Origin: Loxodes magnus | Taxonomy: Eukaryota > Ciliophora > Karyorelictea > Loxodida > Loxodidae | Length of the DNA stretch: 64,000 bases | Direction: 5' to 3' | NCBI GenBank assembly: GCA_946699065.1 | Contig: CAMPDV010000015.1 | Coordinates: forward strand, 62,001-126,000 | Shown: piece after piece, positions 30,452-51,410 of the stretch | Layout: the number at the start of each line of letters is the position of its first letter | Numbering within the stretch: the stretch's first letter is position 1 | Notes under the pieces: generated by a model | Told to the model about the DNA's origin: nothing | The model's database searches: none | Seen by the model: the letters and a program-made list of their open reading frames with translations, nothing else | Translations under genes and position numbers: made by a program

Positions 30452-30617
30452 TATATAAATAAATTAAACAAGAGATAAACTTTAAAAGGTATGAATCATA
30501 AATCTATTCTTTTAAATTTTATTTACCAAGCTTTACATTTCTATTTATCATAGTTTAATTATGATAATTATACAATTTAATTAATTAATTAATTTTAATT
30601 ATAAGGGTTAGGGTCAT

Positions 30618-30651
30618 CTTTAATTAGAGGAAATGTTTCCTCTAATTAAAG
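30618..30651. repeat. Perfect hairpin in the CZ1 3' region
   Basis: Arms CTTTAATTAGAGGAAA (30618-30633) and its exact complement (30636-30651) with a 2-base centre. A related half-site, TTCCTCTAATTAAA, occurs near 42141-42154. Confidence 0.85.
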
Positions 30652-30677
30652 ACAATAAAAGTTTTTATATTCAATAC

Positions 30678-31529
30678 TCAACTGTACATGTCTTCATCTG
30701 AATCAATTTCCAACTAAGATAATTCTTCTTTCTCTTCAATAAGCTCATAGAATTGTTCTTCCATCTTCTTTTAATTTTTCTCCAGCTTCTCTAAACAAAT
30801 TCTAAGGTCATTGTTGTCCTTTTAAAGCTATTTATTCTGTTACTATTAATTACCAAGATTCTGCTTGATTAGTGTCACACTTGAATCGTCTATCATCAGC
30901 TTCTTTCTGTAAATACCTCCAGAGTAGTTACAATATAGCCTCCTCGATGTCCCAAATTCTTTACGGTGCTGCTCAGGCACTCTTCTTCACTTCGGACATT
31001 ACCTCCAAAAATGTCCAGCCTTTTGACAACAATAGCAACGTTTTATGAAGGGCTTGAATTAAAATTTTTATTCTGTTTACATTTTTTCAATTTCAATCTT
31101 TTCTGATTGAAGTTAGTTTTTTTTGATTGGTAATCGAATTTCTTCTTTAATTTTCTATTGATTTGCTTTTAGGTTTTTTTCTAATAGTTCAAATTAGGAA
31201 GTTAAGGCTTCAATTTAAAACTAAACTTTACTTACCAAGTCTTGATCTTCCTTTTTTCTATCTTACAAAAGAAGTCGAAGATTCAAGTTTTCCGCCTTCA
31301 GGATCTATATTTCGGTATTCATTTTCTCAATTAATGAATAAAGCTAAATAATGTCTTGCTCGTGGGGTTTCTCAAGCTTTTTCAGTTTGCTAGGAAATTC
31401 CGTATTTCTCAATCCTTAACAGGAGTAAATTTATCTTTTTTGAATTCTAGGTTCTTGTTAGTTAACTGAGACTTAAGATTGATCTTTAAGGTTAGAATTC
31501 AAGGTTTAGATTCCCGGGTTTTTTTCCAT
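30678..31529 (-). CDS. CZ1 coiled-coil zinc-knuckle protein (gag/ORF1-like)
   Basis: 283 residues, one intact frame. A polar N-terminus (MEKNPGIQTLNSN) is followed by a coiled coil (residues ~60-165), then a CCHC zinc knuckle CYCCQKAGHFWRQC (spacing C-x2-C-x4-H-x4-C). Next comes the family motif RLYCNYSGGIYRKK and a second acidic coiled coil ending DEDMYS at TGA. Zinc knuckles with coiled coils are typical of retroelement nucleic-acid-binding proteins (gag or LINE ORF1), so RNA binding and particle assembly are inferred. There is no enzymatic domain. Several TAA/TAG codons are Gln and the codon after the knuckle's CPK is TGA (Trp), as in relatives. Confidence 0.85.
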
Positions 31530-31590
31530 GTTTATCAATTTATTTTAATTATACAATTTATAAGAATCTTTAGTTTATATTGTTATAGTA

Positions 31591-32047
31591 GTTATGAAAT
31601 TTTTAATTGATAAAGTTTATTTTACTCTTTATAAATTAATTAATTTTTACCTAAAAAAGCTTTAAGATATGAAATAAATACTAAGTATATAATTCTTTAT
31701 TCTTATTTATTAAAGTTTTATCTCATAAGATAGAAAATTTTATGTCCAATTTCTTTTATCTGGACAACAGCAAAAAATTTATGATTTACTTAATTTAACC
31801 CTATAAGGCTTGTTTAAACATGGACTTAAAAACCCTCACTTTAGATAGCCTTATAAATTTATACTAACTAGCTCAAATATTTTCTTTGCTTAATTGGCTG
31901 AAATAATATGGGCATCAATTTAGAATGGTTTATAAAGGAATAAACAAATGTTTCAAAATAAAATAAACTAACTTTAAAAATGAAGAATATTTTATTAATT
32001 TGATATTATAACTATTGGTAGTAATTATATAGTTACTATTTACCTTT
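31591..32047. other. Intergenic
   Basis: AT-rich spacer between CZ1/duplication A and CZ2; no supported feature. Confidence 0.5.
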
Positions 32048-32463
32048 TTTATATTATATTTTTAATAATAATAATAATATGAACTAAAAGTTAAGTGTTT
32101 GGAGTTCCCTGGGTTTCCAACTAGTTTCGCTCCGCTATTTTTTTATACGTGGATGTATATCACGACCTCTTTTTGTATGGTGGAGGTTACCACGGATGAT
32201 TTTCGGTGTTTCTTATGTTCAACTTCTGCCTGTATATACCAGTTTTAGTTAATCATAATTTGTTAATATTTCTTCACATTCTTTTTTCTTCTGATATTTT
32301 GAATTTTTTCCATTCTTGACATTCCCGCAAAATGTGATTATCTTAATTGCAGTATCAACATTTCTTCTTTTGATTTTACACATATATTTTTTAAAATATT
32401 TTGTATTCAATTTTTCAATTCTCTTTATTATAATTGTATCTAGAGTTAAATCATTTTAATTAT

Positions 32464-33299
32464 AAAATAAAAAAAAAAATGGAATAATCTATTCGCCTTT
32501 CCAAAAACCAAATTAAGAACGCAAAAAGGAAAGCTGCGAAACAAATGCAGAGACAACAACAAGAAGAAGATAAATCAAGTTCCTCCTCTGAAGGAAAAAT
32601 CATAATCGGAACAATAGAATCGAATCCAGTAAAGGTATAAAAATAATCCGAAATATAAATATAGCTTGACCAAATGAAAACAATAATACAAAATTATTAG
32701 GAAACAATTTACAACCAAGGGGAAAAAATAAGAGAACTAATGAATACTATCGAAGATTAAAATAACGAGCTTCTAATAATTAGACGATAATTGATTTAGA
32801 ATAATCTAGTCACGGAATAGTAACTATATGAATAATCTCAATCGAATTTTAAGCAAGAACAAAATATGATTATCGAAAATGTTTCTACATAAGCAAACGA
32901 TTAAGAAAAATAGAATGACTAAAAGATTAATATAGATTTAATCAAAAGAATCGATTAACTTGAAAAAAAAGTATTTCTGAAGAGATTCAAGAAAAAACAA
33001 GGCAAACAATGCTATTATTGCAAATCAAAGTGACACTTATTACAAAATTGCGATTAGTGAAGATAAATTTAGATAAAAGAACAATAAAGAACGTTAAGCA
33101 TACTCAGCAGACTCTGAATAACCTAAACAGGGATTTACAAGAGAAAACTATTCACATAAAAGACAGAAGATCCTCTGTGGTTCCATCCACATAAAAAAAT
33201 GGCGTGGTATCCATCCACGCTAAAAAAATGGTAGCAAAAACCTGGTTGAAAATCCAGGGAATGCTAAACTTTAATTACTTTTAGTTTACTATTATTATT
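32464..33299 (+). mobile_element. CZ3 retroelement nested in CZ2
   Basis: 836 bp on the plus strand, bounded by 14-bp duplications ATCATTTTAATTAT (32450-32463 and 33300-33313). An A-rich 5' end leads directly to the ATG. The 3' end has two CATCCAC-type blocks, the hairpin CTGGTTGAAAATCCAG and a (TTA)n tract. It must have inserted after CZ2. Confidence 0.92.
32479..33249 (+). CDS. CZ3 coiled-coil zinc-knuckle protein
   Basis: About 251-256 residues in one intact frame. A basic N-terminus (MEQSIRLSKNQIKNAKRK) is followed by a Ser-rich acidic stretch, a coiled coil (residues ~60-165), a CCHC knuckle CYYCKSKWHLLQNC, then TGIYKRKL and a basic tail rich in Trp, Pro and Lys. Trp at TGA occurs within the knuckle (KSKWH) and just after it. 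It ends at TAG 33232 or TGA 33247. A nucleic-acid-binding role is inferred, as for CZ1. Confidence 0.82.
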
Positions 33300-33771
33300 A
33301 TCATTTTAATTATTTTTTTCTTATTTTTAGAAAGGAGCATTTTCAATGTCCATTTTTTGAGCTTATTTAAAGTTTGATTAAGACTATTCATATAGTTACT
33401 GTTCTGTAACCAAATTGTTTTAGATTAATTGCCGTCTTAATATCAGTAGTTCGTTGTTTTAGTCATCTATATTATTCATAAGTTCTCTGATTTTTTCTCC
33501 TTGATTATAAATAACTTCCTCATAATTAGATATTTACTTCCTCATTTTTGATAGTAGATCTTACAGTTGTGGGTCATTGTCAGATTTAGATTCATTCATT
33601 TCAACTGTACTGATCATAATTTTTCCTTCAGGTGAAGAACTTGAATGCTCTTTCTTTAGTTATTTTTTCAATAATTCTCTAGTGGCTTTCTTTTTAGCGT
33701 TTTTAATTTGGTTTCTTGAAAGTCGAATGTTTTGCTCCATTTTTTCCTAGGATTATTTATATTATATTTTT

Positions 33772-34586
33772 TTTTTTGTATTTAATTGTTTAATTTTATT
33801 AAAAAGGGTATTTCATAATTATCTTATGCTCATTAGTTTCCTTTATTTACTTAGATATGTTTTATTTTTTAATTAAAACGAAAATTTTTTATTAGCTTAT
33901 TTATTCACACTTTTATGCTTAATGCAATATTAACTTCTTTATTAACTTCAATGCTATATCTTTATTTATGAATTACTTAAAGACTAATTTATTTTAAACA
34001 TTAAACTTTAATTTTATTTCTTACTTTTATATAATATATGTATTATTAGTCCAAGAGTCATTATTAATTCAATCTTATCACTTTTTATCATTAAGTTATA
34101 TACATAAACTATGTCTTTTATAGTTAAATACTTAAGTTTCTATATCTCATTTATAATATTTAAGTATCTAAGAGCAAGTTTTTAAGTGAGTGCCTTTTTT
34201 ATCGCTAAAGTGATTGCATTATAAATAACTATTTAATTTTTTGCTTTTAACTATCATTATTTTAATTTACTAGATAAGTGACATAATTATACAAAGATAA
34301 CTTGATAAGTCCATATTATCTTGGAATTTCATCTGCAGCTTCTTTTATTTTCTTCCAGGATTATTCTGGATGATTTTTCGGTTTTATTCAGATTCATAGA
34401 GGATTTCTCTTTTTCTACTTTAATAATAATAGCATTATAATTAAGCTGTTAATTCTAAAAGAAAGCAAAATCCTTCATAGTATAAAATATAAGTCATATA
34501 AATATCCTTATCTAATAGTAAGTTTGTAGCAAATGATTATAGAGGTTTATCTACTTTAAATTAAAAGAAAATTATAAAAGTATTAT
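33772..34586. other. Intergenic
   Basis: AT-rich spacer between CZ2 and CZ4; nothing supported. Confidence 0.5.
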
Positions 34587-34601
34587 ATCTTATATATACT
34601 T

Positions 34602-35566
34602 TAAATCATTAAAATAACTGTTCGCCTTCCGGTTTAATTGAAGTTTTAAATGTATCAAATCTCCTTTCCTGCATATTCGTTCCTTGTGCTCTTTTTCCTG
34701 GACTTCTCTCTTTTTAATAGTAAAGTTAAGAATTTGTTTTTTTTTCCAGATTTTCCCATTTCCCGATGGGAAGAATTCCGTCGCTCGCCACTTCAGTTGC
34801 TAATAGTTAATATTACTCCAAATATTCATTCTTATTCTTATCTATTGGGGACATTTTCGCCATAGATGTCAAGTGCTATTGCAAATGTAACATCTTTTCC
34901 TTGCTCTAGGAAATATCTTTTCTTGTTTCTCTATTTCCATTGAAATTCCTTAAGAAGGTTTCTACAGGTTTTCTTCTATTAATTTAAGTCTGGAATCTAA
35001 TTTTACTCAGTTTTTCTCGTCTTGCTCTTGCATTACTCAAATATCATTCTCTAAATTTTAAATTGACTCATAGACTCCGACTTTAGCTCTTCAGTCTACC
35101 ATATGGACTTCGTCATCATCTTCATGGTTTATCAGATCCTGACTTATTGTAAACATTTCTTCCTTCTGGGAGTTTAATTCCTCTTCGAGTTTTTTTATGT
35201 TTCTAATAAGTAGATGAATCAGCTGTTTCATCTATTCAGAGTTCATTTGTTCTATTTCAATGTTGTCTAAATCAAAGGTAATAGGATCTTTATTAAATTA
35301 TCGTACTTTACCTTCTTCGTTTATTTTTTATTTCTTCGTTATTATTTTTATCGATTCAGTTGAGTGGTCTCTTTTTTCAGTTTTCAATGGAGGCGTTGAG
35401 AGCTGTGTCAACTTTTCTGTTCCGAATTTTTGTCTCAGTTCCTGCTTGTCCTTTGATGGAAGAAGTCCGTTTTATTTTAATTTGTTGGATTTAGTATTTT
35501 TTATGAGTTCTTCTAATTTATTTTGTTGTTCTGGTTATTTTTATTAAGAAGAGCGTTAAGTTGAAG
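34602..35566 (-). mobile_element. CZ4 retroelement, possibly 5'-truncated
   Basis: 965 bp between 15-bp duplications ATCTTATATATACTT (34587-34601 and 35567-35581). The coding frame is open right to the 5' boundary without an upstream ATG, suggesting a small 5' truncation. The zinc knuckle is CYICNSTWHLWRKC (near 34,845-34,890), with TGA as its Trp. After it comes FFPSGNGKIWKKK, the counterpart of the family G-x-I-Y-[RK] motif. A coiled coil with MKQLIHLLIRNIKKLEEEL precedes the knuckle. No triplet tail is obvious at the 3' end. Confidence 0.85.
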
Positions 35567-35581
35567 ATCTTATATATACTT

Positions 35582-36260
35582 AAATTACTTAAACTCTATA
35601 AAATATTAAAAAGCTTATTTATTTTTAATTAGATTTAATAAATTATTCTATCTTTTCTTCCTTTCTTACCCTATTCTCGAAAATTTTCATCGGATATTAA
35701 AATTCAGTTTGATGCTTGAATTTCTCGCTGGTCTTTCTTAGTCCTATAAATTTTAGGATGCTGCTTGTTTCCTATTTTTTGAACAGTGAGAAGATATTTG
35801 ACTATGGCTTTAGCCATATTTTTTATACAACTCTTCTAAATTAAAAACTTAATTATAAATTAATGATAAGCAATCACTTATTAAACTTAAATCTTTAGGA
35901 AATCTGAGATTAAGAAAATAGTTCTTATTCAATCGATAAATAGCAAAATATAATAATTAGTAAAACTTTTATTGCTATTTCTATGAATAAAAATATTTTA
36001 CTGTTTCTATTTATATATAACAAATTACCAAAATTTAAGTAATAGATAGATATTCCTAATCCTTTCCTTATTTATTTTTTCTCATAAGTTGGTAGCTAGC
36101 AAGACGCAATTGTTAAATTCAAATGTAATATTTATTGATACCCAGTAAATTAAAAAAATCTAACTAGAATCAAAAAAACAGAGACTTTTTACTAATATAC
36201 TTATATCACTTGTGAGTATATTGGAATTTCAAAAATAGATATAAAAAGGATAAAATTAAG
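35582..36260. other. Intergenic
   Basis: AT-rich spacer; no supported feature. Confidence 0.5.
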
Positions 36261-36269
36261 TTTATAGTC

Positions 36270-36954
36270 TTAGAAAAGAGCTCCAGGGTTCACTTGTTTT
36301 TGTTCCTGCTCTTGTTGGTCATATTCTGAAAAGTTAGTCTAATATTTATTACTTGTTAATTTTTTCAATTTCTTGTTCCTTCCAGCATTTTTTCCAGCAA
36401 TGATTTTTCTAGCATAAATAGCACCGAATCTTTTTGCGATAATAATTGATCTTATTTATTTCTTATTATTAGAATTCCGATTCGATTTCCATTGGGATAT
36501 TTGATTATCTTTTAATCTTATTAATCTTATTAATCTTATAATTTTTAAATTATTACTTGTTATTATTCTTGTTTTTCTTAAAGTTGTTTTATTTGATATT
36601 CAATTTAAGAAAAATGAAATTGGAACATTTGAGGGACTTCGTTAAATTATTTATCAATTTATTCCAATTTAATTAATATTTACGATTAGATTTTATCTAA
36701 TGATTCATCTATGGATGGGAATTATAGGTTTAATTATTCCATTAATTTTTCTAGTAAGTTTTCTAAATTTTCTATTTTTATCTTTGCTTTTTCAAGTCAT
36801 ATTGGATATTTGATATCCTTTGCTGAACTGATTATACAAAGGATTCCTTAGATTATTAATCTTTATCTTATTAAGGCTATTCTTCAATTAAATTAGGTTA
36901 TTCTTATTTTTTCAAGTATTCGTTAATAGAGGTCTATTATTTCTTAGGTACCAT
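36270..36954 (-). pseudogene. CZ5 zinc-knuckle element, frame-broken
   Basis: Starts MVPKKQQTSINEYLKKQ at 36954. After ~50 codons the homologous reading moves to another frame (LMEQLNLQFPSIDESL, then QMFQFHFSQIEYQIKQLQ) and then to a third for a knuckle CYLCQKNHCWKKC (spacing C-x2-C-x3-H-x4-C, one residue short). No GT-AG introns fit the breaks, so it is a decaying copy. It matches CZ7 in the coiled-coil region. No clear target duplication was found. Confidence 0.65.
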
Positions 36955-37479
36955 TTTATATATAATATAATATAATATATTTAAATAAGTGAATGTATTA
37001 TTCTTTTGTTCATGCTTAATTATTGAGAAATCCTCAGAGACTATCTCAAGGACGAATTTTAAGAATCTTACTAATAATAGAATTATTGTTTGAATTTTTT
37101 ATTTTAAGTTATAAGTCCTAAAGATATACCACAGCACTTATTTTAATTATTTTTATCTTTTTATTCTTCTTTTATTAATTCCATTTAGTGCCTTTTTTAG
37201 TTCAATGAGGAAAAATATTGATAAATTATGAAATAGCTTAATTTAATAACTTTTATTTGCTTCTATTGTTACTTGTTTTCATCAAAAAGACCCCATTTCT
37301 ACTCTTTTTTCATTTTTACATGCCTTCATTAAATACTGAAGTAACTTGTTTGAAATGAAATCTTAACAGAAGAACAACTGTGGTGTTAATCTAAGACATT
37401 TAAGTTTAGGAAGTCCCAATGCTCATTGAAGAAACTTAGAATTATATCGTGACTATCAATTAACTGATTAATCAGAAAT

Positions 37480-37771
37480 TTAAAGAAAAAGAGGTGCAGA
37501 TAATAAAAAAATCTAATAAAAACAAAATTGCTTACAAATTATTAAAAAACAGGAGATTTAAAGAACATGAAGTAATAATCAAAATTTTTATAAATAACAG
37601 TAGAATTAATAAAAAAATAATTAAAACATAATAGATCTGAGTTAGATTAAGAGGGAGTAGTAACCATCCACATAAAGTTTAAAGAATCCAAACTCAATAA
37701 AATTGGATAACAAGAATTGGTTGAAATTTCAATGAAAGCAAACATTTTTTAGTTTGTAATAATAATAGTAA
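37480..37771 (+). mobile_element. CZ6 remnant with 3' tail
   Basis: The 3' end matches CZ2/CZ3: a CCATCCACATAAA block (37664), a hairpin around GGTTGAAAT, AAACATTTTTTAGTTTG, and a (TAA)n tract (37757-37771). The coding part upstream is too degraded to read. Confidence 0.6.
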
Positions 37772-38229
37772 ATTTTTAAAGTTTTGGAGATGATATATTG
37801 AAATAGCTAATTAATAATAACTCTCCTTTTAATTCTAAAGCTATACTCATATTTAGTTAAAGAATCTAAAATATAATTAGATAATTTATTTTTTTGGAGA
37901 GTATTTTGAATTAATATAAATCTTAATTTATTATCACTTAAAATAAAGTCTGTTTATCTTTACTAATTGTAATAAAGGCTTAGTTTTAAATAAATTAAAT
38001 CATTTCTATTTGAATATCCTTTCTTTAGCTTTAAAAACTTTCTTATAATTTAAGATGTTTTAATGCTTTAATTATAGCTTAAATGAATCTAATATAACTA
38101 CTTAAGTAACTTAAAATCTGATTTGAAAGGTGTTTTGTTCTACTGGATTCCAACTGATAAAATTTAAAGATTTAAAGAAACTTAATTAAGTAGATTAATT
38201 AGCATATCTGCTAGCTAGTTATTTTTTTA

Positions 38230-38720
38230 ATAAAATAGAACCTAAGAAATAACAGATTTCTCTCAACAAATATTAAAAAAATGAGAGAAATAATCTAATT
38301 TAATTGAATAATCACTTTAATAAGATAAAGAACATCAATCTAAGATTATTTTTCATAATCAGAGACTTAAAATAAAACCTACATTATGAATTGAAATAAT
38401 AAAGGTAAGTATTTTAATAATTAGAATTGAAACTAGATCAATTAGTATAAAGTTTAAATCTTTAATTTCCATCTATAGAGATGACACTCAATAATATATA
38501 ATCTCGAATGGGTATAAACTAGATGAGAATGGCAAACAGTTTAATTAAATTCCTCGAATGTTTTAATTCCAGTTTCATCAGCTTCAGTAGCAAATTAAAG
38601 AAATCTAATAAAAGTAGGTATTATAATAAGAAAATATTTAAAAGATAAATGACTAAAATGAAGCATATATATGGAAATTGAGGAAAATAGTTTATTTAAA
38701 AAAATGTTATTATAGAGTGC
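38230..38720 (+). pseudogene. CZ7 element, cut within its zinc knuckle
   Basis: Coiled-coil sequence resembling CZ5: TDFSQQILKKWEKQSNLIEQ, LNLQFPSIEM, then in another frame QIPRMFQFQFHQLQQQIKEI. It runs to LKKCYY, the first half of a zinc knuckle, and breaks off at about 38717 into unrelated GC-richer DNA. A probable 20-nt intron GTAAGTATTTTAATAATTAG lies at 38405-38424. The frame change downstream of it shows decay. Confidence 0.6.
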
Positions 38721-38965
38721 GTAGCCCTTCAGAAGGGCTCATCTCTTTAAAATTTCAATTTCTAAGTCTATCTAAATCCCAATATTCCCAAGCATTTTCT
38801 CTTCTAATTGCGGGCAAAGTTGCGGTTCCAATTCTCCAAAGCACAGGACGCCAGCAGGCAATTACAGGTAGATTTCCAACCCATGATAAGGAGATTAATC
38901 TGGTCCAACATTTAGAAAGCTTGTTTCTCAGTCAGTTCATCTTTGGGAAATTTTTCTCGTAACCT
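38716..38965. other. GC-richer island of unknown origin
   Basis: About 250 bases with visibly higher GC than the flanks. They start with a 7-bp hairpin (AGCCCTT/AAGGGCT) and are free of stops under this code on both strands; the minus strand reads, for example, STCNCLLASCALENWNRN. No family was recognised. The junction falls exactly inside the CZ7 zinc-knuckle coding sequence. Confidence 0.5.
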
Positions 38966-39935
38966 TTAAAGGTAAGGTCTACTCTATTTAAATTAAATTA
39001 TATAAAATAAAGCATAAGAAAAAAGCTGGCTGCTATATAAGTCGAAAGCAGCATCATTATCAAAGATGCTGGTATAGAACCTAGTCTTAAAAAAATAAAA
39101 AAGACATATTTAAGGAATTATTTTATATATTTCCATTTCCAATTATACAAGTTAGTATATAGGAATAATTTTATGATAATAAAATAAGAAATTTAAAAAT
39201 AATGCTTTCAATGTAATAGACTTAGCTGTAAAATTTAAATCATAAACAAGGATGGATGACTAACGAAGTTCAAAGCTATCTTTAACTCAAGAGTTGACAT
39301 TTTAAAGATTACTGGATATAAGGACCAACTTTTTAAACTTTAAACTCTTTTGAACTTGAACTTTAACAAAAATTTCCAGACACTAAATATAGCTTAAATT
39401 TAATTGTTTTTAATATAATCAAGTAGTCAAAGTAAACTAGTTATCTATTTCACAATTTGCCTGAAACATTTATACGACTATATCTTAGAGAATTGCTTAT
39501 TACTTCTTAAGTTGTTATTCATAAAACTTGCAAATTTTAAAAGTTCTCTCTATTATTTACTAAACATGGCTTGCTGATATTAAAACCCTTATTTTATAAA
39601 AATGGATTAGTCAGATACTTATTATTATTTTTGTTTTGAGCATACTCAAAAGGCTAAAATTAACAATATAAAGCTTAAGATTTGGTATTTTTTAATATTT
39701 TTAAAACTGTAAGTGAAAATTAAAATTCAAAGCTTCATATTATTCTACCAAAATATTTACTTACTATAACTATTATCATATTAGTTAAGTTTTACCACTC
39801 ATTACATTTTAATAAATTTTAATGTATTAAGTTATTTTACTAGATTATTTGGATATATTGATATAAGCTTTTTCTACTTATTTTAGTGATTTTCACTTCT
39901 TATGAATGTTGTTATTATATTATAAAATAGATGTT
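38966..39935. other. Intergenic
   Basis: AT-rich sequence with nothing supported, leading up to the structured RNA candidate. Confidence 0.45.
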
Positions 39936-40100
39936 GGCCACGTCAGTCAAATTAGTAGGTAATCTGGTGCAGTGTATACTGCATTGCGAGTAATCTCGCA
40001 CTAGATACCACCACGGGGAAGAGTGAATAGGCTCTGTTGAGACGTACCTAACTTACCCCGAGGGTTCTCTCTAGTAGTATGAAAGTTTGACTGACGGGCC
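39936..40100 (+). ncRNA. Structured RNA candidate (unassigned family)
   Basis: A 165-nt, GC-rich block closed by a long stem: GGCC (39936-39939) with GGCC (40097-40100), and GTCAGTCAAA (39942-39951) with TTTGACTGAC (40086-40095). Inside, a stem (39958-39968 with 40000-40009) encloses two perfect hairpins, GCAGT/ACTGC and GCGAG/CTCGC, forming a three-way junction. A further stem CGGGG/CCCCG (40014-40018 with 40056-40060) continues with AAG/CTT. I compared it by eye with 5S, U1-U6, SRP, RNase P/MRP and tRNA and found no match. The strand is assumed: perfect pairing exists on both. It could also be a terminal-inverted-repeat mini-element. Confidence 0.6.
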
Positions 40101-40449
40101 TTCTAAATACCAACTTAATAACTATCTCTTATTTGGACCTTATTCAAGAAGACTGAAGCATTTGACTCAAGATTTTAGAATAATTTTTAATAAGAAGATT
40201 CCCCATTTGGAGAAGTTGACATAACTCATCGGACCTCTAGAATTTAACAAGAATCATGAGAACATTTTTAAATATTAATATTGAAAGAGCTGCGTGCCAT
40301 CGAGGTGCTACGTACTCTATAATCATTTTTATTTATTTATATCTAATTCAGCTATTGCTTTAATTTATTATTTGCTATGAAAAATCTTGCTAAACAAATA
40401 AAGTTGCCTAATTTAAATAGCATAGAGTTTATATGATTCTAATTCTTTA
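40101..40449 (+). other. Short coding-like stretch, unidentified
   Basis: About 40125-40330 reads LLFGPYSRRLKHLTQDF and IPHLEKLTQLIGPLEF in one frame, with codon variety above the background, followed by a GC-rich patch at 40290-40320. No family was recognised; possibly a fragment of a decayed gene. Confidence 0.3.
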
Positions 40450-42075: not shown

Positions 42076-43156
42076 AATCTATATATTCAAATTTTAATTA
42101 TTAAGTAAAAAGAATTTTTACGTCTTTAATTGCAAGAATTACTTCCTCTAATTAAAAAAATTAGCAAATGTTTTTTTAATTCATCTTGATCTCATCATTT
42201 TACTTGAACTCTTGCTTTTCTCTCATTTTTGATTCTTACTTTTAAACTAATTATATTTTCAGCAATTCAAGTTAGAGTTATGTGTAATGTTTTTATTTTA
42301 AAATCTAAGTATTCCAATTAAACATTGGAACTTATTTCATATTTCCTTGATCATTAATATTGAACGACTAAAGTAATTCTCTTATATTAGATAGTAAATT
42401 AACCCAAAAAATTTGCTCAATTACCTCATAATCTCCAGACATAAAACATGACTATCAATAGGATATTTGGCGATAAAAATATCTTTAAAAAGTAAGATTT
42501 GTTTCAAAGTTGATATTTGCTTATTATTTATCATCAATTATATATATTCAACTTCATATAATTATCTTTTGGAAATTTCTAAATATTTCAATTATTCTAT
42601 ACAAATTCTAGCTGTTTTCATTCTTTTTAATTTTAAATAATTAATTATATAAGCAATGCTGTAATTTTTTGCTTTTTATATCTAGTTATATTTTAGATTG
42701 GTACTATTCTAAGAATTCTTTAGATCTACATTAATTGTATCAGCATATTGTTAACTTAAGCATAGTATTTTTCCAGTTACTATCATAAACAGAATCTATT
42801 TTTGATTAAGAAAAATTAAATCTTTTTTATTTCATTCTATAGCATTTTAAAAACTTTAGAACTATAATTTGCTTTAAAAACACGAATCAAATCTATATAA
42901 AATGACTAATTAAAAGTTAAATCAGCTGTTTTCAAAGTTTTTCTTAAAGTTGTTCTCTTGCTTGAATTTAATTCTATTAAAAACTCCAGTTGCTCCTTTT
43001 TTTAAAATCCATGAAACTAATTTCCTCATTATTATACTTTAGGTAGTGATATTTCTATATACTTGAATCTAATGAAATTTAAATAAAATAGATAATTCTT
43101 TTTAATATTAAATATAATACTTTCATCAAATTAATTTTGAATACTAATAGTTATAG
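42076..43156. other. Intergenic
   Basis: AT-rich with a half copy of the CZ1 hairpin arm (about 42141-42154). No supported gene. Confidence 0.45.
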
Positions 43157-43171
43157 TAGAACTATGTTAGT

Positions 43172-44121
43172 AATAATAATATTAATTTTAAGTTTTAGGG
43201 ATTTCCAACCCCGTCAGGGATACAGCAGTTCATACTCCCTGCTGTTAAATATAAAAATTCGGGTCGCCCAATTTTAGCGAGATTGGGAACTCGGATTTTT
43301 CCAGGTTTTCCCTCCTTTAACTTGCCTTGGTTCCTTCTTAATCTTGTATATTGAACCATCCGGGTTGCAATAAATTCTTTTCATTCTTGCTTCTTCTTTT
43401 TTCTTCTTTTTTGTTCTTTTATCCAATAGTTTCTTTATTTCTATTAGAATTTCTAACACTTCCGATAAAAATGTCATACGCTTCCACAGCAGAAATATTT
43501 CTTTTTTATTTTGAAATATTTTCCTTGATTTGTTTGCTCTTTCTAGGCTTCGATTTCCATTTGTATAGCTCCAGTTTCGCTTTACTCTTTCTTAAAGGTT
43601 TACAATTTCTCTTCTACTTTTCCGAGTCTGTTATCCAGTTCAGTCTGTTTCTAAAGCTAATTTTAGAATTCGTTAGTCTGACTTTGTGAGATATTCCAAA
43701 AAGCGTTAAGATCTCTTTCCTAGGACATAATTCTTGACTCAATTCCTTTTGCTTGGTCTAACTTTGCCATCAGCATATCATTGTCCTTCTTCAATCTCTT
43801 GACCTCTCCCTGGAGGTTCAGTACCACTTTGATGAGCTACTCCATGCTCATCTGACCAGAAGGGTTGAACTCTGATACCTCCTGGTTGAGAACAGACTTC
43901 ATCTGTTTCTCACTTGAGGTTGAAGTTTCCTCGTGTATATTCTTCAAGGTTGGTTTTCGTTCGTTTTGTTAGATTCAAAGTTGTTAATTCAGTGTTGGTT
44001 AAGGTTGTGATAGAGAAGATTGTTAAGATTATTAAGACTTGGTTTCTTGCTTCCTCCCTTCCTTTTTGGCTTAGGAAGAGGTGGTATAGAAGCCTGACTT
44101 GAAACCTTCAATCATTTTTTT
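43172..44121 (-). mobile_element. CZ8 retroelement
   Basis: 950 bp, minus strand, between 15-bp duplications that differ at one base (TAGAACTATGTTAGT at 43157-43171, TAGAACTAAGTTAGT at 44122-44136). The 5' end is only 6 bases from the ATG at 44113-44115. The 3' end has a GGGGTTGGAAATCCC hairpin and (ATT)n. Confidence 0.88.
43274..44115 (-). CDS. CZ8 zinc-knuckle protein, possible -1 frameshift
   Basis: Starts MIEGFKSGFYTTSSQAKK. It has a Gln/Ser-rich region, a conserved block FNPSGQMSMEQLIKVVLNLQ, a coiled coil, then a degenerate knuckle KYFCCGSVWHFYRKC in which the first zinc Cys is Tyr. The family motif RIYCNPDGSIYKIKKE follows in the -1 frame. The switch can occur at an in-frame A_AAA_AAG heptamer about 20 codons after the knuckle. 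Otherwise the copy reads as intact. It ends at TAA 43274-43276 in the shifted frame or at TGA further on. Whether the shift is programmed or decay is undecided. Confidence 0.7.
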
Positions 44122-44348
44122 TAGAACTAAGTTAGTTAAATTCATTTTACACTGTTAAATTTAGATTCAAGTTGAAATAAATATTTAATCTGCTTATAAA
44201 TATTTGATATCTCTATAAAAATTATTAAAGTTATATATTAAAGAAAATTTACATGCTTGATTATTTCCTTATTTAATTTATTCTTTTTTAATTAGTAATT
44301 GAAGTAGGAAAAGTAAATTCAATATATCTTAAATATAATTGTAGATTG

Positions 44349-46180
44349 TTAATCTTGTGGATGAATCAGATAATAATACATCTTTCATCTTATTTTTTTT
44401 ATTCTTCTTTTTCATCGTCTAAACCGTCAATTGTGTTACATTTTTCTTTATAAGGACCATGTACTCCAAAGTGTGAGAATTCCCATTCTTTTTTAAGCTT
44501 TTTTCCACATAAATAGCAGAAAAAGGTCTTTGCTTAGCATAGATTTAAGCATTTCATAAAATTGCATCCTTTACTTCTTATAGTTACTGCTTAGCAAACT
44601 GGACATCTTTGTGCTTTGTTATCTATTCTTCACTTCTCAAATCTAAATTAAATATTACAGTTAGTTTTATTAATCGTCTTCCTATTTCTTTTTCCATTCT
44701 TAACAATTCATATCTTAATGGTTTGCCCTGCATGATAAGCAATAAACTTTCTTGCAAATACTACAATTAAACTCTAAAATTCCTTCTCCAATTAAAAGTA
44801 TATTAGGACAGTCAGGTGTTAGGCATTGCTTTGCTCCTTAAAAATCTCTCATTTATAAATAATTAAATTTATCAAAAACATCAGGAGCACAAAGTTCTTT
44901 AACTGCTTAAGAAGGAACTGGAATTTTGCACTTACAACAACATAACTAATCTGGCTAAATTTTTCCAGTATTAATAAATTCTGTCAAATACAAAGAGTAG
45001 CAATCTTTATCCCAAATCATATCACAAGTCTCAGATACGCACTTATATGCTTTATTTATAGGCCATTCCATATAGCACAATTAGCATAAGAATTTTTGTT
45101 CGAAAAAATCCTAATCAACTTCCTTGAAATTCTATAGGAGTTATTTGTGAGCTTCATTCTACTTAATCTTAAACTCTTTTTATCCCCCAAATGCATTTAT
45201 GATAATACCTAAATCTATTATGATTTAACACTTGCACTTTATATTTCTACATTCATTTAGATATAATGATTAATCTGTATCCTAATATGCCTTCTATACT
45301 AAGCATAGCTAGCATAAGAAACACTTTTTACAATTCATCTTATATAGTTAAGTCTAAGCTTATTAGCAATTTTAGCATTTTTAGCTTTTTTATTACCATT
45401 CAATTAGAAATTACTATCCTCCAAAGGCTTGTAAGATTATATCAGGTTATATCAATATTTAGCATGGACATTTTACAGAGAAATCATATATATTGTAAGT
45501 AGAATAAGTATCACTGCTAACTTTTTGCTATATGCATTTATCACATAAGAAGCATCTCTTACAATTGAGACTCAAAACTTTATCTTGACTATTACAAATC
45601 TTACACTTTTAGATTTCCCTTTATCCTTACTTGAAATTTAAATATCCTCCCCAAGCATCAACTATTCTTTAATCAGGAATCTTAACTCCACATGGGCATT
45701 AGATGTTATAGTTAAATATCTGTAATGTTTATTTGGTGTCTTAATAGACTTTTTATTTTAAGTCTGCAAAGCAATAACCATGGAACTTTGGACAGTCTAT
45801 TTCCACTAACTCTACATTACTTTAGTTACATATCGAGCAAGATATCTATCTAATAAAGCTATCTATCTTTATCTTAAAGCCTCCATGCTTTAATTTAGGA
45901 TAAATTAGTTTCATAACTTCTATCATTTCTAGATGAGAAAGCGGACTTTCCTTTTAAATCATCTGCTCTAAAATTAGCATACACTTGGATATATCGCATA
46001 AAACAAACTAGTTTAACTCCATTATATAAATAAATTAAACAAGAGATAAACTTTAAAAGGTATGAATCATAAATCTATTCTTTTAAATTTTATTTACCAA
46101 GCTTTAAATTTCTATTTATCATAGTTTATTTATGCTAATTATACAATTTATAAGAATCTTTAGTTTATATTGCTATAGTA
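44349..46180. repeat. Segmental duplication, copy B (empty CZ1 site)
   Basis: Counterpart of 28783-31590. It contains the uninterrupted CZ1 target TAATTATACAATTTA at 46136-46150, followed by the same flank (TAAGAATCTTTAGTTTATAT). Confidence 0.92.
44366..46022 (-). CDS. RBR-type E3 ubiquitin ligase, copy B
   Basis: 546 residues after removal of the same 16-nt intron (44643-44658). Domain content is as in copy A (Cys-rich modules, IBR, RING2 with GCNFMKC). The last ~20 residues differ: a net 5-nt length change near 44,385 shifts the frame, so copy B ends KKQDERCIII at TGA 44366-44368, while copy A ends HPQD at TAA. Upstream of this point only scattered differences were noticed. With TGA available, copy B does not need TAA as a stop. 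Confidence 0.87.
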
Positions 46181-47740
46181 AGAGTGTAAAATTATGATAA
46201 TTTGCCCTTCAAATAGTTTTAAAAATTAATAGCTTCTCTTTAAGTAAGCAAGTTTTATTCAAAATCTTAGGAAATAATTCAGTTAGGCATGCATATTCAT
46301 CTTTTATCAAGCATATTTGTTTATTTTATAAATAAAGAGTCAACATAAATTAGATTAAATAAAATTTATTAAGTTATTACAATTATATCTAATATACCTC
46401 TTTAATAATAAATCTCCTTCATCATCTATTTTAAAAAATAAAGAAAAGCAAAAGTTAATTCTTTTATAATTTTCTTATTTATAGTAAAGTTTTACTCTTT
46501 CATAAATAAATTATTTATAAACATTTCTAAATAAAATTATGTTATAATTAATTTTCTTTTGCTTAAGGATAATCCTTTGATTCTTTATAATTAAAGTATT
46601 AGTTATTTATAATTATTTTTAATATTATATAAGTAAATAGTTTCTATTTAATAAATTTATAATATCTAAATATTAATAGTTCATAATACTCTTTCACTTT
46701 AATATGCTTATAAAATTATAAGGTTATTCTCTGTATTTCTTTATAATGATAATATAATCTAGCCACTTACTGCTATTTATTCAACTAAGTAAATTTTCTG
46801 GGCTATATTTTATATTTTATCCTAAGTTTAAAGTTTTCTAGCAGTTTTCATTCGATTGAAAGTCTTATATTTATAAAGATAATGCCAGAGATAGATTATC
46901 TTTATCTCTAAATATGTAATCGAAGAGATTGTTTCTTAGAGTATTATGATAAAAATTAAATGAAATAGTCCTTTAATTAAATTTTTCCCAATATTACATC
47001 AATATCTTTTAATATTTCTTTAACATTCTAGTCAATGATAAGCAAATGTAGCTTTAATGATATAAACGAATATAGATTTATTTAAGTGTTAGCTATATTA
47101 ATGCTTATAGGATTAAACTAAATATAATTTCTTATATATTTTGTATTTTATTTAAAGCTACTATAATTATTACAATCCTAGTCATTATTTATCTTTAGAG
47201 CTATTCTATTTTATCTAATTTCAACTTTTAAAATTATTAGATTTTCTTCTTTTAATATGCTCTCTTTCTCATTTTTTTGGTTTATTCTTTTAAAATTTTA
47301 GAAGTTGTTTATAGATAATTAGATATTAATTAATTTAAGGTACATAATAAATTGTAGTAAGTTTATTGAAAATGTGGTCATATAATAAAGCTAGAAATCA
47401 ATCTATAATCAGGTTAATTTAATGATTAAGAAATCAGAAACTAAATCATCTGATTTTAAGTAAATAAAGAGAAATCTAATAAAGTAAAGGTAAATAAATA
47501 TAAGTACACTTTTATATTTAACTAGTTGCTTATAGCCTTTAAGAGATGCTTTAGTATTTCATACATTTTGATAATTGAATTATTTATTTTCTAATATATA
47601 TTAAGATTAAAGAAGATAATATATGAAGAATTGATATTCTAATATTTACAACATTTATATAGATATTAAAACTTATTTCCATTTACATTCAGGTATTTAT
47701 ACTTTTAACTTCATCTTTGAAATTATTATTTGATAATTGT
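46181..47740. other. Intergenic
   Basis: About 1.5 kb of very AT-rich sequence; nothing supported. Confidence 0.5.
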
Positions 47741-47755
47741 TAATATAAAAAAAAA

Positions 47756-48691
47756 ATGGAATAAAGTTTCAGGAAAGGCTTCTATACCACCTCTTCCTAA
47801 GCCAAAAAGGAAGAGAGGAAGCAGGAAACTATCTCTTCTCTGTCTTCTTAATAATAGCCTTAATCTTCTTCTTAATAAAAACCTGAAACTTAACAAGATT
47901 AACAAAAGATAACCTTAAAGACAGCCCATACGGAAACCCCAACCTCAAGTGAAAAACTGAGGAAGCAGATGAAGTCTGCTCTCCACCAGGAGGTCTCTTA
48001 ATTTAATCCTTCTGGCCAGATGAGCATGGAATAGCTCATAAAAGTAGTACTAAACCTCCAGGAAGAGGTTAAAAAGCTTCGCAAGGAGAACACGAAGTTG
48101 ACAGAGCTGATCTCTCATGGAATTTAAGATACACTTGATCTTAGAATGGCCAATTAGGAGAGGGAACTCGACGCTCTTTGGAATTACTAACGAGAGTAAT
48201 TTGGTTAGACGAACTCCTAAGTGCAAAAGATTCAAGACTAGAGCTAGCAGATCGAAAATATCTTACAAAGTCAGAAAAGCTTCCAAAGTTAGCAAATTCC
48301 ATTGGAGTAAATTCTATCTGATAAGATGGAGATCGAGAAGAATCCTTAAGTTAAGATGAAAACTAATCAAAAACCTCGGATTGTGAAACTGTGCTACTAT
48401 TGTAAAAGTAAATGGCACAAATGGAAGAACTGCGGTGAGTTTCGTAAAGTAAAAGAAATTACATGGAAAAAACAAGTCTAGCAAAGAATAAGAAAGAGCA
48501 AGAACCAGATCTGATGTAGAACAAATGGAGAAGTCTACAGATTGAAAAATAACCTTGAACTGGAAGAATTTGGAGATAGAGCTAAAATGAAATATAGTGG
48601 GAGATGAAAGATCAGAGGAACAAGACTCAAGAATCCTAGAACTAGAAACTAACAAGATAAAGATAACTTTAAAACTTCTTTTTAGTGGTGA
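47756..48691 (+). CDS. CZ9 coiled-coil zinc-knuckle protein, intact
   Basis: About 309-311 residues in one frame. MEQSFRKGFYTTSSQAKK is followed by a Gln/Ser-rich tract, FNPSGQMSMEQLIKVVLNLQ, a coiled coil (residues ~90-190), a complete CCHC knuckle CYYCKSKWHKWKNC, then IWCRTNGEVYRLK (TGA as Trp) and a basic C-terminus. It is the best-preserved member of the CZ8/CZ9/CZ10 subfamily. An A-rich tract abuts the ATG. After the end (TAG 48683 or TGA 48689) lies a GTGG...CCAC hairpin. A short possible target duplication TGTTAATAT flanks it (about 47739 and 48737), so the element spans roughly 47750-48737, but no triplet tail is present. Confidence 0.82.
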
Positions 48692-48737
48692 CTAATTGGC
48701 GCCACAAAACAATTTAAATTTATCCTATTTATAAATG

Positions 48738-49533
48738 TTAATATTAGCTAGACTTAAAGTTAGGTATCGCTCTAATAACATTATTTTTATTTTTGCTTAA
48801 ATTATTGATGCTTCATTTGAAATAAAAATTTAAATGCCTTTTTATAATCTTAAGTGTAGAAAAAATGATAGAGTATGAATGTATATTTTAAGTTTGATTG
48901 CATGATAAATCTAATTTTAATCTTATTTTTATAGCTTAATTTACATACTTGAAATGGATGCATATTTAAAAAATTATTTATTTTAGTATAATTAGTATTT
49001 TTATACCCTAGTAATTGATTCTCTATTAATGAAGATAGTTATATAATAAATAATATAGTAATATATTTATAATATAATTATAGAGATATTTAGCTATAAT
49101 TAATTTTAATCCTTAAATCTTCTAAAGTAATAAACATGCTACTTAGATTTTATATTTTAAAGAATTAAAGCTAAAAATTCCCTTAATTGATAATTAAAAC
49201 TAAATATTTTCATTGTTTTCACTAAATCGGCTAAACTGATCTTTATTAGCAATCTAGATTTCGTTATCGCTAATTTCAATAATAAGCAATTTTAATAATT
49301 CTTTTTAATCGTTTGAAAAATGACATCTATATAGATAGCAAGCAATGAAAATAGTTAGTTAATATCAATAATAAAATTTAAAGATATATATATATATATT
49401 AAAAACTTAGAAAGGTATCTTATTACAAACAAGCTATATATTTGAATTCTAAAAATTACATCAGTTATTAATTAATTAGGGTATAAAATAGATTAATAGA
49501 GAAAAACTATTTTACTTTAATTAAGTTAATAAA
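48738..49533. other. Intergenic
   Basis: AT-rich, with a short (TA)n tract near 49385-49400. No supported gene. Confidence 0.5.
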
Positions 49534-49550
49534 GCATAAAGGAATTATTA

Positions 49551-50510
49551 TTATTATGAATAAAATTGTTTGACCTTCTTGTACTCATTTCAACTTATTT
49601 CTAGCCTGCCTCCAGATTGCTCCGGAGGCTAAAATTAAATATTTGATCTCTATCTCCATCCACTGTCCTGTCTTGCTTGTTCTTGAAATCTTCAGTTTCT
49701 CTTCCATTACTAATTGCATTTTTTCTTTTATATATTCCCAAGAGTGTTTATCCATAACTGTTCTCTATTCCTTCTTATTTGAAGCTGTTGCTACCTCTTC
49801 CTTTTTTCCTACTGTTATCTTTGCTTTTTCCAGTAACTCTGTTTGAAATTTAGGAATTTCTTACACTTCTTTCACAAATGTTCTCTTGAGCCACAGTAGT
49901 ATCAGGATTTTATTTCTCTCTCGTATAAAGACTTGTCGACTTTAATTTCTTCTATTTCCATCTTATCTTATTTCTAATCCCTTGATTCAATTACTTTTCC
50001 AATGTTTGCTGATATTCTAGTAGCTGTGCTATCTTATCATCGATTTCTCTGTATTTTTAATCTTGATTCTGGGATTAAGTGTTCTGACTCTGAGATATGT
50101 TCCAGAAAGCGCTTAAATCTCTCTCCTGAGACATGAGTCTTGATTCGATTTTCTCTTGCTTGTTCAGATTCTCCATTAGTTTGTCATTGTCCTTTTTCAG
50201 CTTCCTGACCTCTTCCTGGAGGTTCAGTACCACTTTGATGAGCTATTCCATACTCATCTGGCTAGAAGGATTAAACTATGAAACCTCCTAGTGAAGAGCA
50301 GACTTCATCTGCTTCCTTGGCTTCTCTTATGAGGTTGGAGTTATTGCATGTGTTGTCTTCTGAATTTGTTTCTGTTCCTCTCCAGGTTATTAGGATTAAG
50401 AAAAAGGATAGGGTTAAGGGAAAGAAGACTATCCAAGATTGGATTCAGGTTTCTTCTCCAACTTTTTGGAGGTGGTGTAGAAACCTCTTTTGTTTCCTTC
50501 CATTTTTGAT
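49551..50510 (-). mobile_element. CZ10 retroelement
   Basis: 960 bp, minus strand, between perfect 17-bp duplications GCATAAAGGAATTATTA (49534-49550 and 50511-50527). The 5' end lies 7 bases from the ATG at 50501-50503. The 3' part has a GCCTCC/GGAGGC hairpin and a (TAA)n tract next to the target. Confidence 0.92.
49640..50503 (-). pseudogene. CZ10 zinc-knuckle protein gene, one frame break
   Basis: Starts MEGNKRGFYTTSKKLEKK, with the subfamily block FNPSSQMSMEQLIKVVLNLQ and a coiled coil. A single indel-type frame change near 49,975 precedes DKMEIEEIK and the knuckle WYYCGSREHLWKKC, where the first zinc Cys is replaced by TGA (Trp). The second TGA in the knuckle is at the usual Trp. The frame change and lost ligand suggest recent decay. 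Confidence 0.75.
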
Positions 50511-50693
50511 GCATAAAGGAATTATTAAACTAAATTTAGTATAAAATTCAGTTTTTTAATTATTTTAGCTTTAACTAATTTTTGAAAAGTAAATATAATG
50601 AAAATGATATATTTTTAATTATTATATTTTATAATTTGGTATTCTCTTAATGCAGTAGGACTTGGAAAGGATTTTCTGGTTCTGAAGGAGAAA

Positions 50694-51410
50694 ATGAGTA
50701 AAAGAAAGGAAGCATCTCTTTTTTAACCCTCTTCGGAAATAAGAAAAATGCTAATACTCTTCTGGATAGACTGAAGAAATAAATATTAATAAATAAAAAA
50801 CTTTATAAACCCAAAAAATAAAACTGTTTAAAGCTTATAATGAAGATTTTACTAGCTTGAATATATCGAAGATTAAAATGACACATATGATGTAGAAGAA
50901 TCGCGCAAGATGATTGGTGTTCTAAGATACGAAAATACGCTATTATAAGAACGAGTGAGCTAAATTTTTTAAGAACCGATTGAATTTCAAGACATACAGG
51001 CGTCAATAAATTACATAAATGAAGAATTGAAAAAACTAAAAGGATTGAAAATTGAATTTCAAGGAGTCAACAGTCGAATTAAAGCCTAAAATACCTGAAG
51101 TGGAAATTATTCAGGAATCAAAAATGCAGGCATCTTATCCATGCTGCACAAAACCTATATTAGCTATAGTAAAACATCCAAGAAAAAATGTTATTATTGT
51201 AGTTCTATTTATCATCTTCTAAAATTATGCTAAGGATTTAAAATTTTTAATAACAAAAATCGAGAAAAATAATTAAGATAATTATGACAAGAAATGAAGC
51301 ACCTATATTACTCAAAAGGCAATTTTTATAGAAAAAATTCACAAGAATACTCAAGAGAACCATTTCCTTTTAATAAATGCAAACAGATCTCTCTCAGCTC
51401 TTTAGAATAA
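50694..51410 (+). CDS. CZ11 zinc-knuckle protein
   Basis: 238 codons in one frame. MSKRKEASLFQPSSEIRK is followed by an acidic part (YIEDQNDTYDVEESRKM), a short coiled coil (INYINEELKKLKGLKI), the knuckle CYYCSSIYHLLKLC and the family motif YYSKGNFYRKN. It is the most divergent apparently intact copy. The end is TAA 51408, since no TGA follows soon in frame. Target duplication and 3' tail were not identified. Confidence 0.65.

What the first reader, a model, noticed from the sequence alone, without database searches (positions are those of the whole stretch)
30580..51410. Dense family of short retroelements that encode only a coiled-coil/CCHC zinc-knuckle protein
About eleven copies (CZ1-CZ11) of a 0.8-1.0 kb element lie in 21 kb, on both strands, at different stages of decay. 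Four full-length copies are 950-966 bp. Each encodes one protein: polar N-terminus, coiled coil, CCHC knuckle (C-x2-C-x4-H-x4-C), then a conserved G-x-I-Y-[RK] motif. They start almost at the ATG, create 14-17 bp target duplications and often end in triplet repeats. No reverse transcriptase, LTR or terminal inverted repeat is seen. This looks like a gag/ORF1-only retroelement family that borrows its polymerase, in a ciliate germline-like or unreduced region.
Basis: partly seen in the sequence, partly recalled or inferred. Interest (0 to 1): 0.88.

Follow-up and report, generated by a model that had tools for sequence, protein, structure and literature searches.

The report
Protein-coding parasites of ciliate LINE retrotransposons
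A ciliate genome carries very many copies of a tiny jumping gene that makes only one RNA-binding-type protein and most likely borrows the copying enzyme of larger elements, a known lifestyle but here in a large, diverse family for which we found no earlier description.

Summary
About ten insertions of 0.83-0.97 kb units, each coding for one coiled-coil-like/CCHC protein, lie in 30.5-51.4 kb (CZ2 and CZ4 are one element split by CZ3). The genome is almost certainly Loxodes magnus, a karyorelict (705.7 Mb; TAA/TAG=Gln, TGA=Trp or stop). All 64 codons can be sense, so open frames prove nothing; codon-level selection does: omega 0.22 between CZ3 and CZ2/4 against 0.89/0.86 in other frames, though recent CZ9 copies show no such signal. 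The units are true insertions: target duplications (20 of 23 scored copies) and three empty sites; no reverse transcriptase, LTR or inverted repeat; CZ3 is rarely 5'-truncated (62 of 68). Autonomous LINEs (A-E) abound. CZ1 shares its 3' stem-loop with LINE E (0 of 10,000 shuffles), LINE E makes similar duplications (2 of 2), and CZ8-10 share ~45 nt of 5' end with LINE A. CZ proteins show no detectable relation to the sampled LINE ORF1s, Pfam, PDB or a 5.8-billion-protein database. Best reading: ORF1-only non-LTR elements mobilised in trans by LINEs; like HAL1 and TRE5-A.2 in lifestyle, but a separate protein family. Trans-mobilisation is inferred.

The parts
30580..31545 (-). CZ1, full-length element; CDS 31529-30678 (283 aa plus TGA); 3' stem-loop around 30617-30652; (TTAA)n tail
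   Evidence: 40 scored genome copies at 95-100%
30565..30579 (.). target duplication of CZ1, copy next to the element's 3' end (TAATTATACAATTTA on +)
31546..31560 (.). target duplication of CZ1, copy next to the element's 5' end
46136..46150 (.). unoccupied CZ1 target site in the second copy of a 1.87 kb segmental duplication (97.3% identical)
32064..33755 (-). CZ2 and CZ4: 3' and 5' parts of one element, interrupted by CZ3; flanked by TTTATATTATATTTTT at 32048-32063 and 33756-33771
32464..33299 (+). CZ3, full-length element; CDS 32479-33249 (256 aa plus TGA); stop codon inside the 3' stem-loop; (TAT)n tail; duplication ATCATTTTAATTAT at 32450-32463 and 33300-33313
   Evidence: 40 scored genome copies at 98-100%
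34602..35566 (-). CZ5, diverged element; duplication ATCTTATATATACTT at 34587-34601 and 35567-35581 (read by eye)
36250..36960 (-). CZ6, decayed copy with a knuckle-like motif; ends not determined
38230..38656 (+). CZ7, decayed fragment, 69% identical to CZ6 over 436 nt
43172..44121 (-). CZ8, full length but frameshifted after the knuckle; duplication at 43157-43171 and 44122-44136 (one mismatch); 5' end like LINE A
47747..48727 (+). CZ9, full-length element (3' end approximate); CDS 47756-48691 (311 aa plus TGA); AAATTT-type tail; weak duplication (score 11) in this copy
49551..50510 (-). CZ10, full length, frame disturbed; exact 17-bp duplication at 49534-49550 and 50511-50527; 5' end 81% like LINE A over 42 nt
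50690..51430 (+). CZ11, diverged copy with knuckle and GNFYR motif; ends not determined
42085..42200 (-). remnant of a LINE E-type 3' end, intermediate in sequence between LINE E and the CZ1 3' stem-loop
   Evidence: score 79, 0 of 300 shuffles; a protein-level search did not reach E 1
39925..40345 (+). SINE-like repeat ending in the LINE A 3' stem-loop; not a CZ element, but shows 3'-end sharing in this genome

Best explanation
CZ elements are non-autonomous non-LTR retrotransposons that code for one protein only. Shown: each complete unit is about 0.83-0.97 kb, with a run of A and an ATG at its 5' end, one protein (polar N-terminus, coiled-coil-like stretch judged by eye, CCHC knuckle, G-x-[IVF]-Y-[RK] motif), a TGA stop near or inside a terminal stem-loop in CZ1, CZ3 and CZ9, and a short microsatellite tail; it sits between target duplications of mostly 14-20 bp; and in CZ1 and between CZ3 and CZ2/4 the protein has evolved under purifying selection. 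Inferred: the RNA is packaged by its own protein, and the ORF2 endonuclease and reverse transcriptase of resident LINEs, most likely LINE E/D-type, recognise the 3' stem-loop and tail and copy the RNA by target-primed reverse transcription. CZ1 would have gained its stem-loop from a LINE E-type 3' end, and CZ8-10 their 5' end from LINE A or the reverse.
For: Target duplications: 11 of 14 CZ copies and 2 of 2 LINE E copies reach score 12, against 5 of 240 mismatched flank pairs, 11 of 12 copies (7 of 7 CZ3, 4 of 5 CZ9), against 7 of 132. Three copies (CZ3 and CZ9 of the window, L043) are in both sets, so 20 of 23 distinct CZ copies; CZ5 in addition by eye. Empty sites: CZ1 against the window duplication and a CZ copy inside LINE A against another LINE A copy, CZ3 inside CZ2/4. 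Dispersion on both strands in near equal numbers. Few 5' truncations in CZ3: 62 of 68 3' tags have the 5' tag at 696-767 nt. CZ1-LINE E 3' homology: score 39, 0 of 10,000 shuffles; on eight chosen stem-loops 91.2% of cells pair (0 of 500 shuffles) and 5 of 19 pairs change on both sides (31 of 500 shuffles; slid versions at most 2). LINE E copies have 16-20 bp duplications, and one copy starts with the same kind of A-run and ATGGA. 5' ends against LINE A in a small set: CZ10 81% over 42 nt (E 7e-8), CZ9 76% over 46 (1e-5), CZ8 74% over 46 (4e-4). Selection: CZ3 against CZ2/4 omega 0.22, other frames 0.89 and 0.86; CZ1 omega 0.31-0.32, other frames 0.63 and 1.05, 5 of 500 permutations as low.
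Against: No donor protein and no mobilisation was observed. Among 8 CZ9 copies there is no codon-position bias (19, 19, 16 variable columns; omega 0.49 against 0.50 and 0.72 in control frames), so recent CZ9 copies show no selection on the protein. A shared 3' end is established for CZ1 only: of 80 CZ-by-LINE comparisons, besides CZ1-E only CZ8-D' and L034-D2 were reached by none of 300 shuffles; retested, CZ8-D' gave 4 of 10,000 (marginal after 80 comparisons) and L034-D2 0 of 10,000 but not at corresponding positions; CZ-epsilon (the L029/L038/L039 subfamily) against LINE A was not significant (1,052 of 10,000) although the bulged hairpin has the same shape. CZ1, CZ3, CZ4 and CZ5 show no 5' match to LINE A. 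Duplications fell below the threshold in CZ1_L008, CZ9 of the window and CZ-epsilon_L029. No coiled-coil predictor was run and the structure job did not finish.
Confidence: 0.85

Rival explanations
1. Same lifestyle, other origin: CZ elements are internally deleted remains of one or more autonomous LINEs whose ORF1 was the CZ protein and which are extinct or not yet sampled (HAL1-like origin). This rivals the origin, not the mechanism.
For: ORF1-only derivatives are known; CZ8-10 share the 5' end with LINE A and CZ1 the 3' end with LINE E, as expected if CZ units arose by deletion or recombination in LINEs.
Against: A profile of seven CZ proteins finds no ORF1 region of LINE A, B, C or E even at E 10 without filters, and the CZ family is itself very diverse (24-34% identity to CZ9). 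LINE D ORF1 was not recovered.
Confidence: 0.4
2. CZ units are processed retrocopies of a host gene family that coded for a CCHC protein, made by LINE enzymes.
For: Target duplications, coding to near the end.
Against: No poly(A) tails in the copies read; the subfamilies have different 3' stem-loops and microsatellite tails; CZ1 stem-loop homologous to LINE E; three subfamilies with 40 scored copies each at 95-100% identity; no homologous protein in the searched database. A source gene was not specifically sought.
Confidence: 0.07
3. Locally duplicated host genes.
For: They are clustered in 21 kb; a real 1.87 kb segmental duplication lies in the same region.
Against: Target duplications and empty sites; tagged copies number 208 to 1,066 and the first 100 places listed for each tag lie on dozens of contigs, on both strands.
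Confidence: 0.01
4. CZ elements are mobilised by an unknown enzyme, not by LINEs.
For: Only CZ1 has a clear shared 3' end with a sampled LINE.
Against: The footprint (duplication length, microsatellite tail) equals that of the two LINE E copies scored; the Loxodes paper reports a paucity of DNA transposase domains (PMC11441545, passages read).
Confidence: 0.06

Closest known systems
HAL1 (half-L1) of mammals
   Same: Encodes ORF1 only, flanked by target duplications, depends on the RT/EN of full-length LINEs (PMC5322556 and PMC5753468, passages read).
   Different: HAL1 is a derivative of L1 with a poly(A) tail (same passages); CZ proteins show no relation to the ORF1s sampled here, end in a stem-loop plus microsatellite, and form many subfamilies.
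TRE5-A.2 of Dictyostelium
   Same: Lacks ORF2 and is mobilised in trans by the ORF2 protein of TRE5-A.1 (PMC5633606, passages read).
   Different: TRE5-A.2 is a variant of its own autonomous partner and lands upstream of tRNA genes; CZ protein has no such partner among the LINEs sampled; tRNA targeting by CZ was not tested.
HeT-A of Drosophila (recalled; titles and abstract starts in the listing only)
   Same: Gag-like protein with knuckles and no reverse transcriptase (recalled).
   Different: HeT-A attaches to chromosome ends and has long UTRs (recalled); CZ inserts internally with target duplications and has almost no UTR.
SINE/stringent-LINE pairs; zebrafish L2 elements as the studied case (PMC4176376, abstract and section list read)
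   Same: ORF2 recognises a 3' stem-loop; CZ1 and LINE E share such a stem-loop.
   Different: SINEs code for no protein (recalled); CZ does.
Type I LINE ORF1 proteins (PMC4120745, passages read)
   Same: Gag-like CCHC knuckle thought to help RNA binding and packaging.
   Different: Type I has an RRM next to the knuckle; the Pfam scans of five CZ proteins gave none, and the fold was not tested.

Membership tests
non-LTR retrotransposon insertion (TPRT product) | target-site duplication of variable length | tested here: met
   20 of 23 distinct scored CZ copies; 5 copies (L004, L007, L068, L069, L070) fell out of the automatic scoring because start or end patterns did not match
non-LTR retrotransposon insertion (TPRT product) | no LTR, no terminal inverted repeat | tested here: met
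   ends of CZ1, CZ3, CZ8, CZ9 and CZ10 read directly: A-run plus ATG at one end, stem-loop plus microsatellite at the other; no systematic scan was run
non-LTR retrotransposon insertion (TPRT product) | variable 3' tail | tested here: met
   tail lengths vary between copies
autonomous LINE | own reverse transcriptase and endonuclease | tested here: not met
   duplications flank the 0.83-0.97 kb unit directly; no LINE A-D coding match in the window
HAL1 | one ORF1-like protein, no ORF2 | tested here: met
HAL1 | ORF1 homologous to the ORF1 of L1 or of a resident autonomous LINE | tested here: not met
   no profile hit to LINE A, B, C or E ORF1 regions at E 10; LINE D ORF1 was not recovered and not tested
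HAL1 | poly(A) tail | tested here: not met
   stem-loop plus TTAA, TAT, ATA or AAATTT tails
stringent-type LINE parasite | 3' stem-loop shared with an autonomous LINE | tested here: inconclusive
   met for CZ1 and LINE E; not established for the other subfamilies
functional ORF1-like protein | coding frame under purifying selection | tested here: inconclusive
   met for CZ1 and CZ3 against CZ2/4; not seen among CZ9 copies
any of the above | RNA binding by the CZ protein and use of LINE ORF2 in trans | not testable with these tools
   needs biochemistry

The most novel reading that the evidence does not exclude
CZ is not a set of LINE deletion products but an old, independent lineage of protein-coding LINE parasites: its own RNA-packaging protein evolved apart from every LINE ORF1 in the genome, and the lineage persists by swapping on the 5' or 3' ends of successive LINE families (LINE E for CZ1, LINE A for CZ8-10).
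Probability: 0.4. Interest if true: 0.75.

Novelty: new variant of a known kind. Interest (0 to 1): 0.6.

Why it matters
The Loxodes genome paper leaves most interspersed repeats unclassified (757,000 copies, 366 Mb; PMC11441545, passages read). Protein-coding CZ elements are likely part of that class (not checked against its repeat table) and would be missed by RT-based annotation. They offer a natural test of why a parasite of LINEs would keep its own ORF1-like protein when SINEs manage without one, and of how elements fare in a genome with no dedicated stop codon, where the stop has to lie near the RNA end. They also show trans-mobilised-type elements living in an unreduced macronucleus.

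Tried and rejected
Host gene duplication: rejected by duplications, empty sites and dispersion. CZ as ORF1 of LINE A, B, C or E: no profile match. Remote homologues: none in Pfam above cut-off (zf-CCHC 12.2 bits against 20.8 for CZ1 only), none in PDB for CZ9 at E 1, none at E 0.1 in a database of about 5.8 billion proteins with CZ9 or with the seven-sequence alignment (this search needs shared 5-residue words). RNA family of the GC-rich block at 39.9-40.1 kb: none near a gathering score. 3'-end similarity of CZ-epsilon to LINE A/B: shape only, not significant by sequence. CZ8-LINE D' and L034-LINE D2 3' matches: not accepted (80 comparisons; positions do not correspond). LINE A as the maker of CZ insertions: LINE A copies showed no comparable duplications (1 of 6 reached score 11, none 12, with the stricter score; LINE B 9 and 8), which points away from LINE A and towards LINE E. 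The first duplication run missed 7 of 8 CZ1 copies through a faulty pattern and was repeated. Fetched loci L055 and L056 held no LINE end, and L046 and L051 gave none that I could use.
Full report
What genome this is. The window lies in G000, 705,730,643 bases in 7,843 contigs. The Loxodes magnus macronuclear assembly is 706 Mbp, and karyorelicts use NCBI table 27, in which UGA is the only stop and also Trp (PMC11441545, passages read; that table 27 reads UAA/UAG as Gln is recalled and fits the frames). In-frame TGA in the CZ knuckles stands where relatives have TGG. I take the host to be Loxodes magnus; the species name is an inference from size and code.

Consequence for the evidence. With no dedicated stop codon, an open reading frame is expected anywhere, so intact ORFs are not evidence. 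I used codon-level substitution patterns and frame controls instead.

Anatomy. CZ1 is 30580-31545 (minus), CZ3 32464-33299 (plus), CZ8 43172-44121 (minus), CZ9 47747 to about 48727 (plus) and CZ10 49551-50510 (minus). CZ2 and CZ4 are two halves of one older element at 32064-33755 into which CZ3 inserted with a 14-bp duplication. CZ5 (34602-35566) is diverged but carries a 15-bp duplication. CZ6, CZ7 and CZ11 are decayed or have undetermined ends. A profile from seven CZ proteins unites the subfamilies; identities to CZ9 are 24-34%. The coding frame starts close to the 5' junction (usually 6-16 nt, up to 31) and in CZ1, CZ3 and CZ9 ends in a TGA near or inside a terminal stem-loop. Host 3' UTRs are also short (median 41 bp, PMC11441545).

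Insertion footprints. In one search, 16 elements were scored: 11 of 14 CZ and 2 of 2 LINE E copies had a duplication score of at least 12, against 5 of 240 mismatched flank pairs. In one search, 11 of 12 CZ3/CZ9 copies did, against 7 of 132. Three copies are common to both, which leaves 20 of 23 distinct CZ copies. L004, L007, L068, L069 and L070 were dropped because start or end patterns did not match; read by eye, L004, L069 and L070 also have duplications, L068 and L007 less clearly. CZ1_L008, CZ9 of the window and CZ-epsilon_L029 fell below 12. Scored lengths run from 12 to 29 bp, mostly 14-20; the longest include tail letters. Empty sites exist for CZ1 (the second copy of a 97.3% identical 1.87-kb duplication), for a CZ copy inside LINE A and for CZ3 inside CZ2/4.

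Abundance. First-look candidates were 1,531, 5,187 and 3,239 for CZ1, CZ9 and CZ3, of which 40 each were scored, at 95-100%, 98-100% and 98-100% identity; candidates are not confirmed copies. Exact tags: 208, 591, 448, and 1,066 for a degenerate knuckle motif; all four reversed controls were 0. Of 68 listed CZ3 3' tags on contigs up to C109, 62 have the 5' tag 696-767 nt upstream, so 5' truncation is uncommon in CZ3. Of 100 listed 5' tags, 62 have an exact 3' tag; the other 38 may be mutated or end differently and were not examined.

Selection. CZ3 against CZ2/4: omega 0.22, other frames 0.89 and 0.86. CZ1: seven of eight fetched copies, dN/dS 0.31; six gap-free copies 0.32, other frames 0.63 and 1.05, and 5 of 500 permutations as low. 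CZ8, CZ9, CZ10 and the L035 copy, four pairs: 0.23-0.39 with saturated synonymous sites and 67 to 128 codons out of phase. CZ3 within-family: five variable columns, four at third positions. CZ9, eight copies: no signal (19, 19, 16). So the protein mattered in the history of CZ1 and of the CZ3 group; recent CZ9 copies give no such sign.

The autonomous elements. [quoted passage not shown] From fetched loci I distinguish LINE A (5.5 kb), B (5.3 kb), C, D and E (about 6 kb, if L057 and L050 belong to one copy). The six LINE ends folded each form a stem-loop, and they are followed by a microsatellite or T-run. The Loxodes paper describes two 5-6 kb LINE families; I did not match mine to them. LINE A, B and C have a CCHC motif upstream of the reverse transcriptase; the LINE E ORF1 region gave no Pfam hit.

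Links between CZ and LINEs. One search compared ten CZ ends and the window remnant with eight LINE ends. CZ1-LINE E stands out (score 39, 0 of 10,000 shuffles), and the remnant at 42085-42200 matches LINE E with 79 and CZ1 with 47. On eight chosen stem-loops (four LINE E-like, four of eight CZ1 copies) the structure is 91.2% paired, with 5 of 19 pairs changed on both sides; 31 of 500 shuffles reach that second figure and the sequences are few and related. LINE E has the same duplication length (2 of 2 copies), and its one complete 5' end the same start context. CZ8-10 share about 45 nt at the 5' end, coding for GFYTTS, with LINE A; CZ1, CZ3, CZ4 and CZ5 do not. A 421-bp SINE-like repeat in the window (39925-40345; 4,121 candidates, 40 scored at 93% or more) ends in the LINE A stem-loop, so sharing of LINE 3' ends goes with multiplication in this genome. 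Stringent LINEs recognise such stem-loops through ORF2 (PMC4176376, abstract).

Interpretation. The simplest account is trans-mobilisation of an ORF1-only element by LINEs. ORF1-only elements mobilised in trans are known: HAL1 (PMC5322556, PMC5753468) and TRE5-A.2 (PMC5633606). CZ works like these but is not a HAL1: its protein matches no sampled LINE ORF1 and it has no poly(A) tail. I therefore call it a new variant of a known kind. I saw no description of it in the listings, which search an open-licence library only; the supplements of the Loxodes paper were not readable here.

Limits. One genome, incomplete sampling of LINE families, no LINE D ORF1, no expression data, no finished structure model, and no direct test of trans-mobilisation.

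Noticed in passing
window 39925-40345 (+): A SINE-like repeat with a GC-rich head without Rfam match and the LINE A 3' stem-loop as its tail; 4,121 first-look candidates, 40 scored at 93% or more.
   Followed up: partly
L059, L062 and other CZ3 copies: The A-run before the ATG varies from 8 to 31 nt among nearly identical CZ3 copies, and CZ1 copies carry differing short filler there. Slippage, untemplated addition or variable RNA starts could explain it.
   Followed up: no
window 28713-30579 and 44278-46150: A 97.3% identical segmental duplication of about 1.87 kb that covers a cysteine-rich open frame; one copy has CZ1 inserted at its edge.
   Followed up: partly
G000 contigs C5131 and C20: LINE A-type reverse transcriptase domains recur with periods of 2,504 and 2,532 bases, i.e. 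tandem arrays of a LINE piece.
   Followed up: no
L039 and L029: Read by eye: LINE A appears inserted into a CZ copy (L039), and a CZ copy lies next to a LINE A 3' end and a tRNA-like sequence (L029); with L035, nesting goes both ways.
   Followed up: no
L070: One CZ9 copy appears to have a duplication of about 30 bp, longer than the rest (read by eye).
   Followed up: no
L049/L050/L052 and window 42085-42200: The LINE E terminal stem-loop overlaps what reads as the last ORF2 codons (QLKEAILAIKDV), so coding and RNA recognition may share the same bases.
   Followed up: partly
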